From: Pilaira anomala | Lineage: Eukaryota > Mucoromycota > Mucoromycetes > Mucorales > Mucoraceae | Length of the DNA: 64,000 nt | NCBI GenBank assembly: GCA_025716855.1 | Contig: JAIXMQ010000023.1 | Coordinates: forward strand, 248,001-312,000 | Direction: 5' to 3' | Shown: positions 43,748 to 53,611 of the stretch, piece by piece | Layout: every line of letters begins with the position of its first letter | How positions within the stretch are numbered: position 1 is the stretch's first letter | Translations under genes and position numbers: made by a program | The notes under the pieces: model-generated | Database searches by the model: none | What the model was told of the DNA's origin: nothing | The model's input: the letters and a program-made list of their open reading frames with translations, nothing else

Positions 43748-45316
43748 TTATTTACGATGTCTAGCACAGAACTCATCCATTCTTTTGTAAGCCTCTTCAA
43801 GACGATCAATTGTAGGAGTAATAACGAATCGAACATAATTAGGATAATTGAAACACTACATATACAGAAAAAAAAAATTAGTTATGCACATAAAAAAAAA
43901 AAAAAACTCCAATTTTTTTGTTCTCTTTATACCTCTCCAGGAAGACAAACTACATTTTCTTCAGCTAAAAGTTTAGCACTGAATTGAACATCGTTCTCAA
44001 TATCCTTAAACTTGTTTACCTCAATGCCTACCATCATGTACATGGCACCTTGAGGTTGAACAGGAACTAAACCATCGATTTTAGAAACAACCTTCATACT
44101 CAGTTTCACATTATCTTCCAATTGTTTAATGGTGGATTGAAAGAAGGATTCAGGTGTCTTTTCAAGAATATCTGGAATAGCTGCTTGAATAAGTGAGTTG
44201 GGTCCCAAAATGATTTGTGCTAACTGATGAAGTCCTTCATTGACCTCTTTAAAGATACCGTTACGATCATGAATCGTAATCCATCCAACTCTCCAACCAG
44301 GTACAAGCCATTTCTTGGCAAGCCCACCCACTGCTAAAATAGGTACTGTAGATGTTAACGTGGCCATTGGGAAGAACTTGTTTCCTTCAAATACAAGGTC
44401 ACAATAGATTTCATCAGAGATTATTGGTACATGATACTTTTCTGCTACCTTTAAAATCGCTTGAAGATGTTCGCGAGAATAAACGGATCCACAAGGATTA
44501 GAAGGACTATTATTTTTTAAAAAAAAACAAAGTCAATAAGAGTTGTCCTTTTTTTTTCATGCAAACTTACTTGTTGACTAAAATAGCACTAGTCTTATCA
44601 TCAATCAAGGACTCCATTTGTGCCAAATCTGCTTCCCAATTCTTCTCAGGCTTTACACATATATATATAAAATTAATTAAATAAAAAAATAAAAAAAAAA
44701 GCTTACTTTTGTACAGTTATAACTTACCAACAAATTATAATACTTTGTTTCAACAAATCGAGTTGCAGCTAAAGATGCATAAAGAGAGAACCCAGGACGA
44801 GGCAAGAGAATATTAGTTCCTTCATTACAAAGTACATTTACACACATCTCAAGTGCTCCCGAGCAACCATTGGCCAAGATAACATCACTGGGCTCTAAAG
44901 GTGCAGCAGGTGTACTATATTCTTTTGCAATAGCTGTACGTGCCAATAAAGTACCTATTTTTATATATATATACTTAATCTTATGTACCTGTTTTTTTTA
45001 CAATTTTACAATCTTACCGTCAGCAGGTGGATATCCATTTGATTTGAAACTATTCAATTGCTTTGCAACTGCTTCATTGATACTAGGATCCACATTAAAA
45101 TTACCAAAAATAGTGGGGTCACCTAATTATATGACACGTCAATATTTAAAAATTTCACACGCTTTCTTTTTTGACATTACCAATAGACAAACTGATTAAG
45201 GGTTTAGTAGCATTAGGATCTAACTTGAGTTGATCAACAATAGCTCGAATAGGGTTATGAGCTTGTTTAGCAGTTCTTGAAGACTTGATATTCCAGCTAG
45301 CACGGTCAGAACTCAT
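43748..45316 (-). CDS. tyrosine aminotransferase-like class I aminotransferase
   Basis: PLP enzyme of aromatic amino-acid catabolism; closest by pattern to tyrosine/nicotianamine aminotransferases. Six exons: 45316-45181, 45122-45018, 44954-44728, 44650-44571, 44506-43933, 43855-43748, giving 409 residues. Marks: WNIKSSRTAKQAHNPIRAIV and ISLSIGDPTIFGNF at the N-terminus (typical TAT start), DVILANGCSGALEMCV, NNPSNPCGSVYS, IISDEIYCDLVFEG with the PLP-contacting Asp and Tyr, and GGLAKKWLVPGWRVGW carrying the Schiff-base lysine. C-terminal FVITPTIDRLEEAYKRM. With dihydropteridine reductase in this window it suggests a phenylalanine-tyrosine degradation route, but the two genes are 31 kb apart and not clustered. 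Confidence 0.9.
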
Positions 45317-45966: not shown

Positions 45967-47841
45967 ATTACGTTATCAAAGTCCCTACGCTAAGCTATGT
46001 GTTTACTGACCTTCGTTAGTTTTTTTTGGTCAAGAAAGGCCAAAGTTTTTTTTTTGTTAAAGCGGGAAAAGCATTTCAGCCAATCAAATCTTCTAAAAAA
46101 GATTGAGTGAGAAAACAATATACAGTTTGAGTTAGAGCAAGTATATTTTTTACATCTAAAATTATAATTTTAAACATATAGAAAAATGCGCCCTTAAATT
46201 CTATATTTTTTGTATATCATATTGTTTAATAAAATAGTTGATCTAGAGGACTTTACTTTGACATGAAAGGTTTCCAGGGCTTAATGCTGTAGGCTGTGTG
46301 TGGTCAAGTTAGCAGCGACTAGACGCACTACTATGAAACTACACACACCGCAAAAGGACTATAAACACCCCAACTTTTAAGCCCAGAAAACCTTTCATGT
46401 CAAAGTAAAGTCCTTCAATATTAACTATTTTATTATACAATATTATATCCAGAAAATTCTAAATTTATATGGGCAGATAATTGTATATAAAGATGTATTT
46501 TTTTATATGTAAAAAATATACTTTTTCTAACAAAAACTGTTTTCCTTACATGCACTACAAATGGAGAGTGCATGTAGCATGGTCTATATACACCTCGTTT
46601 TTCAGTCCCAGAAATCAAAATTTTGACAAAAAATACCTTCTTGTCAAAGTAAGGTCCCTCTAAATCAACTATTTCATTAAACAGTATGATATACAGAAAG
46701 TGCAGAATTTGAAGGCGAATCTTTCTATATTTTTAAAAGTATATGTTTAGTTGTGCAAAATATACTTGCCCTAACAAAAACTTTATTTTGTTTTTTGACA
46801 ATAAACATAAATTATTGTTATTACTTAGCTTTGATTTTTGCACCATTAGAAAGAGCGCAAAATTCTACATATGTCATTAAAAGGCTAAGCTTCAAAACCG
46901 TCTTAATCTAAAGATGTATGGATATTTCTCAATTTTGAAAAAATCCATAGGGGGGGACTAGCAAAATTTTCAAGAAAATGGAATTTTTTTCACAGCTTAA
47001 AAAAAATAAAAAATTAGAAATGCAGATATATCTTTGTATTTAAATGGTTTTAAAGTTTAGATTTTTATTGATGTCTAAGGTAGAATTTGACGCTCTTTCG
47101 AATGATGTAAAAATCAGAGTAGTATAATTATAAAGTTTAATAGTCATTGCGAGAAAGCACAGCTTCTATTAGGACATGTATATTTTTTATATACAAGATA
47201 ATAAATCTAAATGCATAGAAATCTTAGTTTTTAAATTCTACATCTTTGGAATATAACATTGTCTAACAAAATACGTCTGTATCCTGATTTGGTTTTTTTC
47301 CTGTTTTTGGACCTAAAAATTGAGATTTGGGTCCAAATTTCTTTCTTTTCAAATTTAAGTCCTTTATTTCACCTATTCTATTATACAATATAATATACAA
47401 TCGATGCAGAATTTAAAGGCGCATCTTTCTATTGATTTAGAATTGCTATTGTTTATGTAGAAAATATACTTGCCCTAACAAAAACTGTATATCGTTTTTT
47501 CATAATACCTATAAATATTTGTTACTATTTTACTTTGATTTTTACATCATTGAAAAGAGCGTAAAAGTTTACATATATCTTTAAAAATGTAAGCTTCAAC
47601 AGCATTTCAATGTAAAGATACATATACATTTCTGATTTTTGAAAAAATCCAAAGGTAGGGATCGTTGATTTTTGGCTAAAAATGTAGTTTTTTTCACTTT
47701 TTCCGATGATTTGATTGGCTCAAATTTTTTTTCGCGATAAGAAAAAAACCTTGTCTACAATGCCTCGTTTTTCTTTATCAAAAAGACTAATTAGGGTCAG
47801 TAAACACACATAATGTAGCTTAGGGCTTTACTCTCGTAATA
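45967..47841. mobile_element. foldback repeat element, copy C (composite, about 1.9 kb)
   Basis: Longest copy of the family. The ends are inverted repeats: left TTACGTTATCAAAGTCCCTA, CGCTAAGCTATGTGTTTACT, GACC; right, reverse complement, ATTACGAGAGTAAAGCCCTA and AAGCTACATTATGTGTGTTT. Inside, a palindrome is centred near 46310 (GGACTTTACTTTGACATGAA at 46252 versus TTCATGTCAAAGTAAAGTCC at 46394), followed by the same direct-inverted-direct module order as copy A: TACTTGCCCTAACAAAAAC at 46762 and 47467, the inverted form near 47165. From about 46380 it runs collinear with copy A. No long reading frame. Confidence 0.8.
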
Positions 47842-49861
47842 GAATGGTAGTATCAGAAGGTCTCTTTTTTTAATTTTTTTTACCGTAAATTAAAAGTGAG
47901 AGAGGCAGATTTAGCTATCAAGAATTATATTACTTTGGCAATGACCACCAAAAGTCTTAATGCAATATTGTATAGTTAGTTAAACTGATATATCTGCTTT
48001 ATTTTTACCTAAGCAAAATGGCATGTCGTCAAAGATAGAAAAAAATTAACAATTATAACAATGTGCATAACTAGTGAATGATATTTATAAAAATCTAGTG
48101 AATGATGTTTAAAAAGTTATATATATATATGTATTCCAAACTCTGGCCACAAATCAAAATATTATATTCGAAGGCGTGTCTAATGTGTAACTAGTATGAA
48201 GCGAATGTTAGTCATGATTTTAGACCCAACATTCGATCTAAAATACAAATCAAGGCAAACAACTGATAGCGTAAAAGTGGCATACAACTTACTTGCAATA
48301 GTACATAAAGTTGCATCCACTTTCTTTTACGCTGATGTCACTTTATTCAAAAAAAAATAAAGGTTTGTATTTCGATGCATCTGATAAAATGATTTGCCTC
48401 TAAAAAAAAAAAAAGGAACAATCATACCAAAGAATAATACGACCTGAAGTACACTTTAAAGAAGCAAAATATTTTTTGCTATTGACGGAATTGGATTATG
48501 TATTTACTGCTCACTTTTTGAAGATGTGCGTATTCAAGACATTAACATATAATAACATAAAAGTTTCTAACGTTAAGATTGCAGAAAAAGAGACATATCT
48601 TTTTTACAGAATGTGAAGTATAGGTATATATAACACTGGATTTTTTTTATAGACGCCCTAGCCCTTATTATCGCTCTAGGATACGTAACGGAATATTGAG
48701 ACATGGTCGCTGTTTTGAATATGCTTGATGTTGTAAGACATCTTCGAAAATACGGTTATATTTTAACAGAATTCATGCGAGCAGGGATCCCGCAAGCCCA
48801 AAGACAACGATAGGTTATCTGATTTATGTTATATGTTTTTTTTTCTATTTATTCTACGCTCTATTTACTTTGTGCTTTTTCTCTTCATTAATTAAAATTT
48901 TGGCAGAGGAAAAAACGCCTCAATGGGCTGAGGCTACCTTTATTTTTTTTGTGTACGTTGCAGTAATTTTGGTTATAACTGTTTGTAGACTCCACAATAA
49001 AATTGACACAAGATACATGGCTAATATATTAAACATTGTTTGTATCTTGTAAGCTCTTGTAAGTTTAAAGAGAATATTTCTACTCATATTAGGATTGTAT
49101 CGAGGAAATAAAGTTCATTGCTTCTCATGCTAACTAGTTAAACTGCTGACATATAATACAAAGCTAGCGACAGTACCTATTTATGTAATCATAGAGTGAA
49201 CATATAAATATATTTTTCTCCTCAACTAACTCGATCAGCGCTATTTGAATTTTCAGGGGGATGATGATTTTATCTGGTTTATCAACGCGAATCTTGTCCC
49301 TTACAAGGCATTAAAAATAAAAAAGAGAACGATGGCTGTTGAGCCGCGATAACAAATAAAAATAGCTTTATATATTGTGGATAGGTTAACCGATGTACTA
49401 AATAAGCTTGCTTCAAGATAAAGATAAAACCGAGAATTTATTTCCCTTGCACTTAGTACGAAGTAAGAAGAAAAAAAAAACAAAGCTATTTGAAATAACA
49501 AAAAAAAAAAAAAAGAAAAAGAAAAAGACATGTGCTGTTTTAAACCAAATCTATCCGTTAACTTATTTTCTCCACATTAAGTTTGTATTTTGAGGATCTT
49601 CCTTTTTTTTTTAAAAGTCGTCTTTTCCGTAACACACATATAATTATTTTTAGATTTTTCACTGACAGAGTATAAATCTGGAACCTTTTTCCCCTTTGTA
49701 AAAATTTTTTATATTATATATAAATAATATGTACAGTTCCTGGAGATCGTTGTCTTTTTCTTTTTCTTTTTGTTTTTTTTAGCTCCTCTTTTTTTTTGTT
49801 TTTTCTATACCTATTCCCTTTCTTTTTCTTTTAAATAATATATATATATATGTATAAAAAG
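47842..49861. other. 2-kb intergenic region, no gene seen
   Basis: No supported gene. There is a short direct repeat CTAGTGAATGAT (about 48070 and 48093), and a short arginine-rich frame near 48651 (RRPSPYYRSRIRNGILRHG) that ends in a stop and is unassigned. The T-rich stretch before 49862 is the LRR gene promoter. Confidence 0.5.
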
Positions 49862-51972
49862 ATGAAGAATCGTGTTTTTATACTGCTATTTGTTATACTA
49901 AGCCTAATTGCTATTGTGTTTGGTAGGTTTTACTTTGTTTACATTGCTAAGCTCTATTTATTTACTGTTCTTTTTTATTTCGATAGCTCAAGAAGATGAT
50001 TATGATGAAGAGGAAACGATGACTGATAATATGCCTGATACAACCGAATCTGAGCCATCTTCCTCCATACCTGAAACCGAAACCACACCTACCTCGAGTA
50101 TTATCGCCGACGCCCCCTCTTCCACCAATATCGAAACAACACCATCTGCACCTGTTAGTACAACTGTCAACCCACTTGCATGTACTGCTTTACAAAAGTT
50201 ATATACTACATTAAACGGAAACGGTTGGGTTGTTAAAACCGGTTGGGATTCAACAGATATGAATACCTGTTGTAACTGGTATAATGTCCACTGTAACAGT
50301 TTTGGACAAGTGTTAAAAGTGTAAAGTATACACCCCCTCCTTCTCCCTCTCTTTTTTCTTATTATGCGAGCACCCCCTTATATGTACGTTTATCTTCTTT
50401 ATTCTAATCAACTTTTTTTATCTTTTTTTTTTTTTTTTTACATACATAGCGTGCTTGCACATAACAATCTCGTTGGACAACTTCCTGATAGCTTTGACCA
50501 GCTCCCAGATCTTCAAACAATGTAATACAGTACTACCTAATTTGATTATTATCGACAAAAAAAAGATTAACACCATTTCACTTTCTTTTTTAATAGCGAT
50601 TTAAGTCATAATAATATTTCTGGACCAATTCCTGGTACAATCGGTAGTCTTTCTAGCTTAAGATCAATGTAAATAGAAAAGAACAATACGCGATTCATTA
50701 TTATTTACCTTTTTTTTTTTTGCCTCATATAGTAACTTTGATGTCAATTTTCTCTCTGGTTCACTTCCCTCGGGTTTAAGTACTCCTGCTAATCTTACAA
50801 CTATGTAAATCTTAATATTTTTAAAAGAAATAGAGCGATAGAAAAACTTAAAATTATTTAAACTTCTAGTCATTTTAAAAATAATTCATTCACTGGATCT
50901 ATCCCTGATTCTTGGGCCAACATGAAGGCAATTCAAAATATTTATCTCAGTAACAATAATTTGACAGGTCCATTCCCTAATATAATCACTCAAATGCCTA
51001 CACTCAAGTCACTGTAAAGTTTTATATTTGTATACAATTTTAATTTTTTTTTTTTTTTTTTTTTTATTTTTAACTTTAAATTTGTAGTTATATGGATAAT
51101 AATGCTTTTAATGGATTTTTACCTTCAAATTTGGGTGACCTTGCTTCTCTTGTACAATTGTAAGTTTATCTGGATCGAAAAATAATAATAATAAAAATTA
51201 ATTGTTTGTTTCTTTTTTGTATATAGAAACCTTAAAGATAATCATTTACTTGGAAACATCCCATCATCGATTGGTAATATCACCGGATTACAATCTTTGT
51301 AAGTTATTTGTTTATCGTGTTCATATTTATTTATAGATTTTTAATTTTTTTCTCTTTTTTAGAATTGTGTCACATCAAATGTTGAACGGAACTATTCCTG
51401 ATGAGGTCTATAACTTAGTAGGACTTCAAGTTTTGTAAGTATTTTTTTTTTCTTTTTCTTGCCTTTATTTATATCAACCTCCATTAAACTCTTTTTTTTT
51501 TTTTTCCTTCTATTTAGAGATCTTTCCAACAACAGATTCACAGGTCCTATTTCTTCTAAATTGGGTCAACTTGTCAATGTACAAAGATTGTAAGTCTAGT
51601 AATGTGGTAAACAAAGAAGAATATTAACTTTAGTTTTCTTATAGAAACCTTGGACATAATGGATTAACTGGTCCAATTCCTGAGGAAATCAGTCAACTGA
51701 CAAAGCTTCAAAGTCTTAATTTAAATTACAACGCATTAAATGGTCGATTTCCTTCCGCTGTAGCTCCTGCCGCTCTCGGTTACTGCTACATGACCCCAAA
51801 TCAATTTCAATCTTGTCCTGGCCCTGAAGTCATTAACAATCCTGAAAGTTTAGCTTTCCAATGCTCTGTTGATTGTATCGTTAGAACAAAGACAAAAGGT
51901 GATGCTTCTCATCTTGGTTCTTCTATCTCTGCTTTGTTCATTGTTATCATAGCTACCTTAATTACCATGTAG
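49862..51972 (+). CDS. plant-type leucine-rich-repeat surface protein, one exon per repeat
   Basis: Secreted or GPI-anchored LRR protein, 456 residues, ligand unknown. Eleven exons: 49862-49922, 49987-50320, 50450-50521, 50597-50668, 50733-50804, 50870-51013, 51088-51159, 51227-51298, 51363-51434, 51518-51589, 51645-51972. After a signal peptide (VFILLFVILSLIAIVFG) comes an acidic Ser/Thr-rich stretch, then an LRR N-cap with paired Cys (LYTTLNGNGWVVKTGWDS, NTCCNWYNVHC). Eleven LRRs follow, of the plant type LxxNxLxGxIP (for example LSHNNISGPIPGTIGSLSSL, LSNNRFTGPISSKLGQL, LGHNGLTGPIPEEISQL). Seven exons are exactly 72 nt, and one is 144 nt with two repeats; every intron in the array is phase 2 at the same repeat position. 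A Cys-containing C-cap and hydrophobic tail (SALFIVIIATLITM) fit GPI anchoring. No kinase domain. Confidence 0.9.
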
Positions 51973-52409: not shown

Positions 52410-53611
52410 TTACTGAACAGGCATAGGATCGTATTCATTAGTAATGACAAGTGCAGGGATTGTTACACTCAGACTTAAAAACATGGCAACAATCCAAATA
52501 TGAAGACACATTTCCTATAAAGACAATGGTTAGTAAAAAAAAAAAAAAACTTGCAATGAATGATATATTAAACTTACTCTGCTATATTTCAAGTACTCAG
52601 GATCAATAACACCCACCATTTTCTTTTGACTATCAACATCTAATTTCCTACCATTTAATCTTTCGTTTTTACCTTCTCCTAACTGATAGTATTCATCGAT
52701 CTCATACATGGGGACCATTCGGATGTTTAATGCAGCTCGAATCGTACAGAACCCAATACGCCCTGAAAGTATACTGATTGCAAACAAGAATGTGATAGGA
52801 AATAAAAAGAGTCGATACCAACGAGACGCATGATTAGAGTATGAATAATATAACACCATTGGGATATGTAAAAGGTTCACAAGTGCTTGAACGTAGTGAA
52901 GAACAACCCAGCTGTATCTAATATTTTGTAAGGCATTATTCAAGAAACTATTGAGACTAGAGGTTCTCATGATATTATAGACATGCTCATGGACATCAAT
53001 AAACACATCAGGATGTGTAGTTTGACAACCATAGTATAAAACATGTCGACTCATCCAACCTTCAATGTTTAACTCCTTGAAAGATTCAGTATGGAAGAAG
53101 GTTCTTAAAACTGCATCTACTTCGGCTCTGAAGGGCTGATCCTTTTCGGTTTCATATTCAAGATCGGTGGGAACAGATTGTTCAAAGAAATCCTTGTTAG
53201 AATCATGAGTAGTTGGCTTGTATCCTGCCTTCTTCAAATCGTCTAAAGGAAGATTATAAGAGTTTGGTGTGGCCCGTTCTTTGGGAGGTTGGGATTTCAT
53301 TTGCTCCTCTTCTGGTAAATCTTGAAATCTGCGCTTGTAACTAAGATACCAAGTATAAAAATCAAGATTCTCGACCGAATGCTCTTTATTCATTAAAAAG
53401 TATCGAAAATCTTTCAATGAAATAGGTTGACATGTTGTATTATTCAAGATCTGATCTATAAAATTATTTCTCTTGTTAGTATTAATGAACTCGGCTTTTG
53501 TTTATCCTGTTTATGTTTACACTTACCAATATGAACTGTTTTAATATCGGCTTGTCCACCAACTAACCAACGCTTAACTGATTTATCAAAAGTTTTTAAA
53601 TGTTCGAGCAT
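52410..53611 (-). CDS. RGS-domain membrane protein (Rax1-like)
   Basis: Putative regulator-of-G-protein-signalling protein with C-terminal membrane segments, the architecture of yeast Rax1 (bud-site landmark). Exons 53611-53527, 53455-52578, 52514-52410 give 355 residues. The N-terminus has an RGS-type start (ILNNTTCQPISLKDFRYFLM, then VENLDFYTWYLSYKRRFQDL) and a second RGS segment (VDAVLRTFFHTESFKELNIE, FIDVHEHVYNIM). Three hydrophobic stretches follow: VVLHYVQALVNLLHIPMVLY, LFLFPITFLFAISILSGRIG and the last-exon IWIVAMFLSLSVTIPALVI. The final exon encodes 34 residues plus stop. Family placement is by architecture and pattern; partner Galpha unknown. Confidence 0.7.

What the first reader, a model, noticed from the sequence alone, without database searches (positions are those of the whole stretch)
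49862..51972. LRR gene assembled from 72-nt exons, one leucine-rich repeat per exon, all introns in the same phase
Seven exons are exactly 72 nt (24 codons) and one is exactly 144 nt, and each array intron splits a codon in phase 2 at the same repeat position. That is what tandem duplication of an intron-exon module produces, with the 144-nt exon looking like loss of one intron. The repeats are plant-type (LxxNxLxGxIP), unusual for a fungal surface protein. Seen directly: exon sizes and phases. Inferred: expansion by module duplication and a possible recognition role.
Basis: partly seen in the sequence, partly recalled or inferred. Interest (0 to 1): 0.75.

Follow-up and report, generated by a model that had tools for sequence, protein, structure and literature searches.

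The report
Fungal LRR surface-protein gene, repeat per exon
A fungal gene for a probable cell-surface protein is cut into exons that mostly encode exactly one protein repeat each; the layout looks old and stable, a fungal example of an arrangement already described in brown algae, ciliates and vertebrates.

Summary
The gene at 49862-51972 has 11 exons: exons 3, 4, 5, 7, 8, 9 and 10 are 72 nt, exon 6 is 144 nt. Introns 2-10 are all phase 2 at one point of the 24-residue repeat. Each of the nine array junctions is spanned by an ungapped alignment to at least one of four Mucoromycota relatives. The 456-aa product has a signal peptide, Ser/Thr-rich linker, Cys-capped array of 11 LRRs and GPI-type tail, and no kinase.

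Repeats pair by position with Circinella in 10 of 10 cases, less cleanly with Umbelopsis (5 of 10 and 6 of 9). Circinella and U. isabellina models each lack one whole 24-aa unit; the two Umbelopsis models together account for 11. This favours old module duplication and later intron loss, not recent expansion. Four searches found no second gene of the kind in the genome.

Such phase-2 arrays are in print for brown algae and vertebrate receptors, and at 90 bp for Tetrahymena; this is a fungal case. A recognition role is plausible and untested.

The parts
49862..49922 (+). exon 1, signal peptide (61 nt, ends phase 1)
   Evidence: hydropathy; another in-frame ATG lies upstream at 49850
49987..50320 (+). 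exon 2 (334 nt): acidic and Ser/Thr-rich linker (23 S+T of 61) and Cys-rich N-cap (CCNWYNVHC)
50450..50521 (+). exon 3, LRR 1, 72 nt, phase 2-2
   Evidence: 5' junction spanned in P0121 only
50597..50668 (+). exon 4, LRR 2, 72 nt, phase 2-2
50733..50804 (+). exon 5, LRR 3, 72 nt, phase 2-2; about the unit missing in the U. isabellina model (gap at residues 179-202; LRR 3 is 180-203)
50870..51013 (+). exon 6, LRR 4 and LRR 5 fused, 144 nt, boundary without intron
51088..51159 (+). exon 7, LRR 6, 72 nt, phase 2-2
51227..51298 (+). exon 8, LRR 7, 72 nt, phase 2-2
51363..51434 (+). exon 9, LRR 8, 72 nt, phase 2-2; exactly this unit (residues 300-323) is missing in the Circinella model
51518..51589 (+). 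exon 10, LRR 9, 72 nt, phase 2-2
51645..51972 (+). exon 11 (328 nt): LRR 10 and LRR 11 fused (second boundary without intron), Cys C-cap, GPI-type hydrophobic tail, stop

Best explanation
This is a single-copy Mucoromycota gene for a secreted LRR solenoid that is probably held at the cell surface by a GPI anchor and binds a ligand, most likely along its concave face. Its one-repeat-per-exon layout arose by duplication of an exon-intron module flanked by phase-2 introns before Mucorales and Umbelopsidales parted. Repeat number has been nearly stable since, with precise loss of the R4/R5 and R10/R11 introns. Inferred: module duplication, GPI anchoring, ligand binding. Every array exon can be skipped alone or in pairs without a frame change, whereas retention of any array intron gives an immediate TAA; whether skipping happens is unknown.
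For: Gene model and register; nine of nine junctions spanned by at least one relative. Relatives in Circinella, Backusella, U. vinacea and U. isabellina. Ten of ten Circinella repeats are the best match of Q R1-R7 and R9-R11, and Backusella's last five of Q R7-R11. Missing units are whole repeats: Circinella lacks Q residues 300-323, U. isabellina 179-202. The Umbelopsis models complement each other: eight repeats pair by position; U. vinacea lacks counterparts of U. isabellina repeats 1 and 7, U. isabellina lacks U. vinacea repeat 2. U. vinacea carries extra residues at repeat junctions that read like unspliced intron. Hydrophobic C-terminal tail without cytoplasmic part in Q, Circinella and both Umbelopsis. 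The Circinella model (pLDDT 84.5) is an LRR solenoid like plant receptor ectodomains and PGIP.
Against: No DNA of any relative was available, so their introns are inferred from predicted proteins, and missing repeats may be prediction errors. Pairing with Umbelopsis is weak at repeat level: only 5 of 10 (U. isabellina) and 6 of 9 (U. vinacea) best matches are positional; Q R8 and the U. isabellina repeat at its place are not best matches. Array introns show no clear similarity (best z 3.15 of 36 pairs, mean 0.8), so copying of introns is not directly seen. The Circinella and U. isabellina models show no obvious signal peptide and the Backusella model is garbled at both ends, so secretion and tail are not shown for all relatives. 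No GPI predictor, expression or ligand data.
Confidence: 0.68

Rival explanations
1. Introns were inserted independently, many times, at the same site of already repeated DNA, rather than copied with the exons.
For: Introns are not similar to each other. Repeated DNA offers the same context at each boundary.
Against: Nine of nine at one nucleotide. The base before each array intron is T, the second base of an Ile, Leu or Val codon; in 24 rough candidate introns elsewhere in the window it is A or G in 17 and T in 7 (uncurated; it recovered none of this gene's introns), so this is not an obvious insertion site. Boundaries without introns fit loss more simply.
Confidence: 0.14
2. Repeat number is still changing in this lineage, or splicing drops single repeats, so that the gene makes a set of receptors.
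For: All eight exons 3-10 are symmetric; each single skip and 28 of 28 pairs stay open. Two of four relatives' models lack an R8 unit. MtSERK3 in Medicago has variants lacking the exon of the first LRR (PMC3061892, passages).
Against: No closely similar repeats in the gene; pairing across genera; no second copy. U. vinacea's gap carries apparent intron remnants, which points to annotation error.
Confidence: 0.12
3. The gene came with its introns from a plant or another eukaryote by horizontal transfer.
For: Among the 120 listed of 2785 hits, named non-fungal ones are plant LRR proteins; closest solved folds are plant ectodomains.
Against: LRR similarity is dominated by the shared consensus, and eight unnamed proteins in the same list match at 33-37% identity too. 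The cap profile finds only four Mucoromycota proteins, two of them in the profile itself. No LRRNT_2 match.
Confidence: 0.05

Closest known systems
Brown algal LRR-ROCO genes (PMC11378527, passages)
   Same: 72-bp exons, one LRR per exon, called phase 2 by the authors
   Different: LRR-ROC-COR GTPases with shuffled exons and several splice variants; their text (nucleotides 3-71 form 23 codons) suggests another codon register than here (nucleotides 2-70)
Tetrahymena 90-bp-exon LRR genes (PMC6564038, passages)
   Same: Arrays of equal-sized LRR exons with extreme phase-2 bias and the same 1+2 split of the junction codon
   Different: 90-bp exons, more than 1000 LRR genes in most species, recent clonal expansion; here one gene and an old array
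Vertebrate gonadotropin receptors (as described in PMC11378527)
   Same: LRR domain with all introns phase 2, thought to come from one LRR exon
   Different: Seven-helix receptors with another LRR class (recalled)
Plant LRR receptor kinases such as SERK, and PGIP
   Same: 24-residue LxxLxLxxNxLxGxIP repeats, similar solenoid; in Medicago SERK3 exon 3 encodes the first LRR and can be skipped
   Different: No kinase, no LRRNT_2 match, probable GPI anchor; inhibition of polygalacturonase unknown
Fungal LRR 'receptors' of Soanes and Talbot (PMC2939053, abstract and section 5 read)
   Same: They list two zygomycete species with one-helix LRR proteins without other domains; these may be this family
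   Different: Their sequences and exon structures were not seen (supplement not read)

Membership tests
One-LRR-per-exon phase-2 gene architecture | Exons equal to one repeat or a whole multiple of it | tested here: met
   seven of 72 nt, one of 144 nt
One-LRR-per-exon phase-2 gene architecture | All array introns in one phase at one repeat position | tested here: met
   9 of 9
One-LRR-per-exon phase-2 gene architecture | Alternative splicing of repeat exons (reported for brown algae) | not testable with these tools
   No transcripts; symmetry only
Tetrahymena and brown algal LRR exon arrays | Expanded multi-gene family in the genome | tested here: not met
   No second gene found; one search recovered 5 of this gene's 9 LRR-bearing exons as a sensitivity check. 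Counts are lower bounds by the tool's statement. I do not file the gene as a member of these two families, only under the wider architecture
Plant LRR receptor kinase | Kinase domain | tested here: not met
   no kinase family in the window protein or in P0001, P0015, P0017
Plant LRR receptor kinase / receptor-like protein | LRRNT_2 N-cap (PF08263) | tested here: not met
   E<=0.1, 0 of 4 proteins (P0121 not scanned), no match in the genome at E<=1
Plant LRR receptor kinase / receptor-like protein | 24-residue plant-specific LRR | tested here: met
PGIP | LRR solenoid fold | tested here: met
PGIP | Inhibits polygalacturonase | not testable with these tools
   Needs an assay
GPI-anchored surface protein | Signal peptide and C-terminal hydrophobic tail without cytoplasmic part | tested here: met
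   Hydropathy of the window protein; tails of relatives by eye
GPI-anchored surface protein | Anchor attachment site used in vivo | not testable with these tools
   No predictor or experiment
Fungal LRR adenylate cyclase | Cyclase domain | tested here: not met

The most novel reading that the evidence does not exclude
A lineage of a kingdom reported to lack LRR receptors has kept a single LRR surface receptor whose repeats are splice cassettes: regulated skipping of whole 72-nt exons, R8 first of all, would give one gene several ligand-binding lengths for recognising bacteria, mates or hosts.
Probability: 0.08. Interest if true: 0.75.

Novelty: new member of a known kind. Interest (0 to 1): 0.42.

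Why it matters
The exon layout is known elsewhere, but none of the ten answered paper searches (open-licence papers only; listings judged by title and start of abstract) showed a fungal case, nor did the parts seen of seven papers. It extends a striking pattern, phase-2 introns at LRR boundaries, to another kingdom, so one can ask whether such introns are ancestral to LRR modules or arise repeatedly. It also offers a compact, apparently single-copy candidate surface LRR protein in a kingdom where such receptors are reported as nearly absent (PMC2939053).

Tried and rejected
Recent tandem duplication: rejected, since repeats are diverged and array introns not clearly alike. A second gene of the kind: not found. 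Of ten other LRR loci examined by motif, eight show three or more repeats within one frame; several of these genes also have frame breaks whose introns I did not map. The other two: L051 has two repeats in one frame, and L045 has an LRR gene of another type by eye, with introns inside the repeat region, one of which follows a 69-nt LRR exon in phase 0 by my reading. So the genome has another short LRR exon, but not of this size, phase or repeat type. Bacterial and viral contigs: 26 and 14 pattern matches, none confirmed; patterns came from the C-cap, so only that cap was tested. The C-cap region search found only Backusella though Circinella and Umbelopsis share the cap, so its sensitivity was low. 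Background splice context: a first script gave 7 candidates, a looser one 24; both uncurated, and neither recovered an intron of this gene. TTA at all four junctions of introns 7-10 (0.017 from this gene's Leu usage; chosen after seeing it) with GTAAGT donors only there: not pursued. N-cap resemblance to bacterial and stramenopile caps is recalled; my first pattern found 0 of 121 proteins, the window's own kind included, so it was too strict, and a looser one flagged none. Foldseek's viral library was not used. L052 and L053 were fetched and not analysed. The species was not identified.

Full report
Observation. The sequence gives an 11-exon gene at 49862-51972 with ten GT-AG introns and a product of 456 aa. 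Exons 3, 4, 5, 7, 8, 9 and 10 measure 72 nt and exon 6 measures 144 nt. Intron 1 is phase 1; introns 2-10 are phase 2 and all lie at the same offset modulo 72. They split the codon of residue 1 of the repeat, the Leu, Ile or Val at the start of the LxLxxN segment. All 11 repeats are spaced exactly 24. Nine of 11 boundaries, counting N-cap/R1, carry an intron; R4/R5 (exon 6) and R10/R11 (exon 11) do not.

Is the model right? Without transcripts I used relatives. Each of the nine array junctions falls inside an ungapped block of a pairwise alignment with at least one of four relatives: Circinella covers 6 of 9, Backusella 4, U. isabellina 7, U. vinacea 4. The N-cap/R1 junction rests on U. isabellina alone. 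The relatives are predicted models, so this tests the joined frame rather than splicing itself.

Relatives. A full-length search (best 120 of 2785 listed) is dominated by plant LRR proteins but is headed by Circinella umbellata P0001 and includes Backusella circina P0015 and Umbelopsis vinacea P0017. A profile of the two caps made from the window protein, P0001 and P0017 returned four proteins at E<=1 among 496 candidates: those two, P0015 and U. isabellina P0121. Scans of bacterial and viral contigs with C-cap patterns confirmed none. As found, the family is confined to Mucorales and Umbelopsidales; only proteins of 0.55-1.75 times the query's length are searched, so badly predicted relatives can be missed.

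Repeat history. In one search ten of ten Circinella repeats are the best match of the positionally matching Q repeat, Q R8 having none; Backusella's last five match Q R7-R11, while its first, at R6, does not. For Umbelopsis only 5 of 10 (U. isabellina: R4, R6, R7, R9, R11) and 6 of 9 (U. vinacea: R3, R4, R6, R7, R9, R11) best matches are positional, although whole-length alignment keeps the order. The gap in Circinella is exactly Q residues 300-323, that is exon 9; in U. isabellina it is 179-202, one residue off LRR 3. Between the two Umbelopsis models eight repeats pair by position; U. vinacea lacks counterparts of U. isabellina repeats 1 and 7 and carries extra residues at those places that read like intron, so prediction error is likely there. 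Together the two account for 11 repeats. Loss of whole units from predicted proteins is expected if each repeat is an exon there too, but this is indirect. Within the window gene repeats average 30% identity (best 54%, R7/R10), array exons 48% at DNA level, and array introns show no convincing similarity. I conclude that module duplication is old and that repeat number has been almost stable.

Only one such gene found. The genome (34.25 Mb, 225 contigs) was searched with LRR_8, the protein, LRR_1 and a two-repeat consensus. The last recovered 5 of this gene's 9 LRR-bearing exons (4, 6, 8, 10, 11); its other 15 of 20 matches lie in open frames of 135-1480 aa. Of ten other loci examined by motif, eight show three or more repeats in one frame and L051 shows two. 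L045, picked because its LRR_1 match lay in a frame of only 37 aa, holds an LRR gene of another type by eye with introns in the repeat region, among them one after a 69-nt exon, phase 0 by my reading. Counts of this kind are lower bounds by the tool's own statement.

Consequences of the layout. Leaving out any one of exons 3-10, or any pair (28 of 28), keeps the frame open. Retention of any array intron instead gives NTG then TAA, since all nine begin GTAA after two bases of a codon. This follows from phase 2 plus a usual donor and is no special design. Whether exons are skipped is unknown.

Comparison. Brown algal LRR-ROCO genes have 72-bp LRR exons called phase 2, with shuffling and splice variants (PMC11378527, passages). 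The same paper says that all introns of gonadotropin receptors are phase 2. Tetrahymena has tens of thousands of 90-bp LRR exons with phase-2 introns (PMC6564038, passages). A Medicago SERK3 variant lacks the exon for its first LRR (PMC3061892, passages). Soanes and Talbot report LRR receptors as nearly absent in fungi, with two zygomycete species among the few exceptions (PMC2939053, abstract and section 5); whether these are relatives was not checked. PMC5296948, PMC4776374 and PMC10197012 were seen as passages only and gave no fungal case. So the kind is known, and the fungal case is new to the searches made here.

Verdict. Real, well formed, old by inference, and apparently single-copy: a new member of a known kind of gene architecture and a good candidate surface protein. 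Recent expansion is not supported; the recognition role is open.

Noticed in passing
window 45998-47808: Repeat-rich block about 2 kb upstream with nested inverted repeats and 29-nt outer arms (86% complementary); a 341-nt piece has 99 matches in the genome (40 of 362 candidates scored), so it looks like a high-copy foldback or MITE-like element.
   Followed up: partly
window 50321-51644: Introns 7-10 have GTAAGT donors and interrupt a TTA Leu codon, while introns 2-6 have other donors (GTAAAG, GTAATA, GTAAAT, GTAAAT, GTAAAG) and interrupt GTC, ATC, ATT, ATT and CTT.
   Followed up: partly
L045:1850-2150 (minus strand): An LRR gene of another type by eye with introns inside its repeat region, one after a 69-nt exon.
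   Followed up: partly
window 52530-53501, minus strand: A 323-aa open frame downstream, RGS-like at its start by eye only.
   Followed up: no
window 44000-45316, minus strand: An intron-bearing gene that looks like an aminotransferase by eye only.
   Followed up: no
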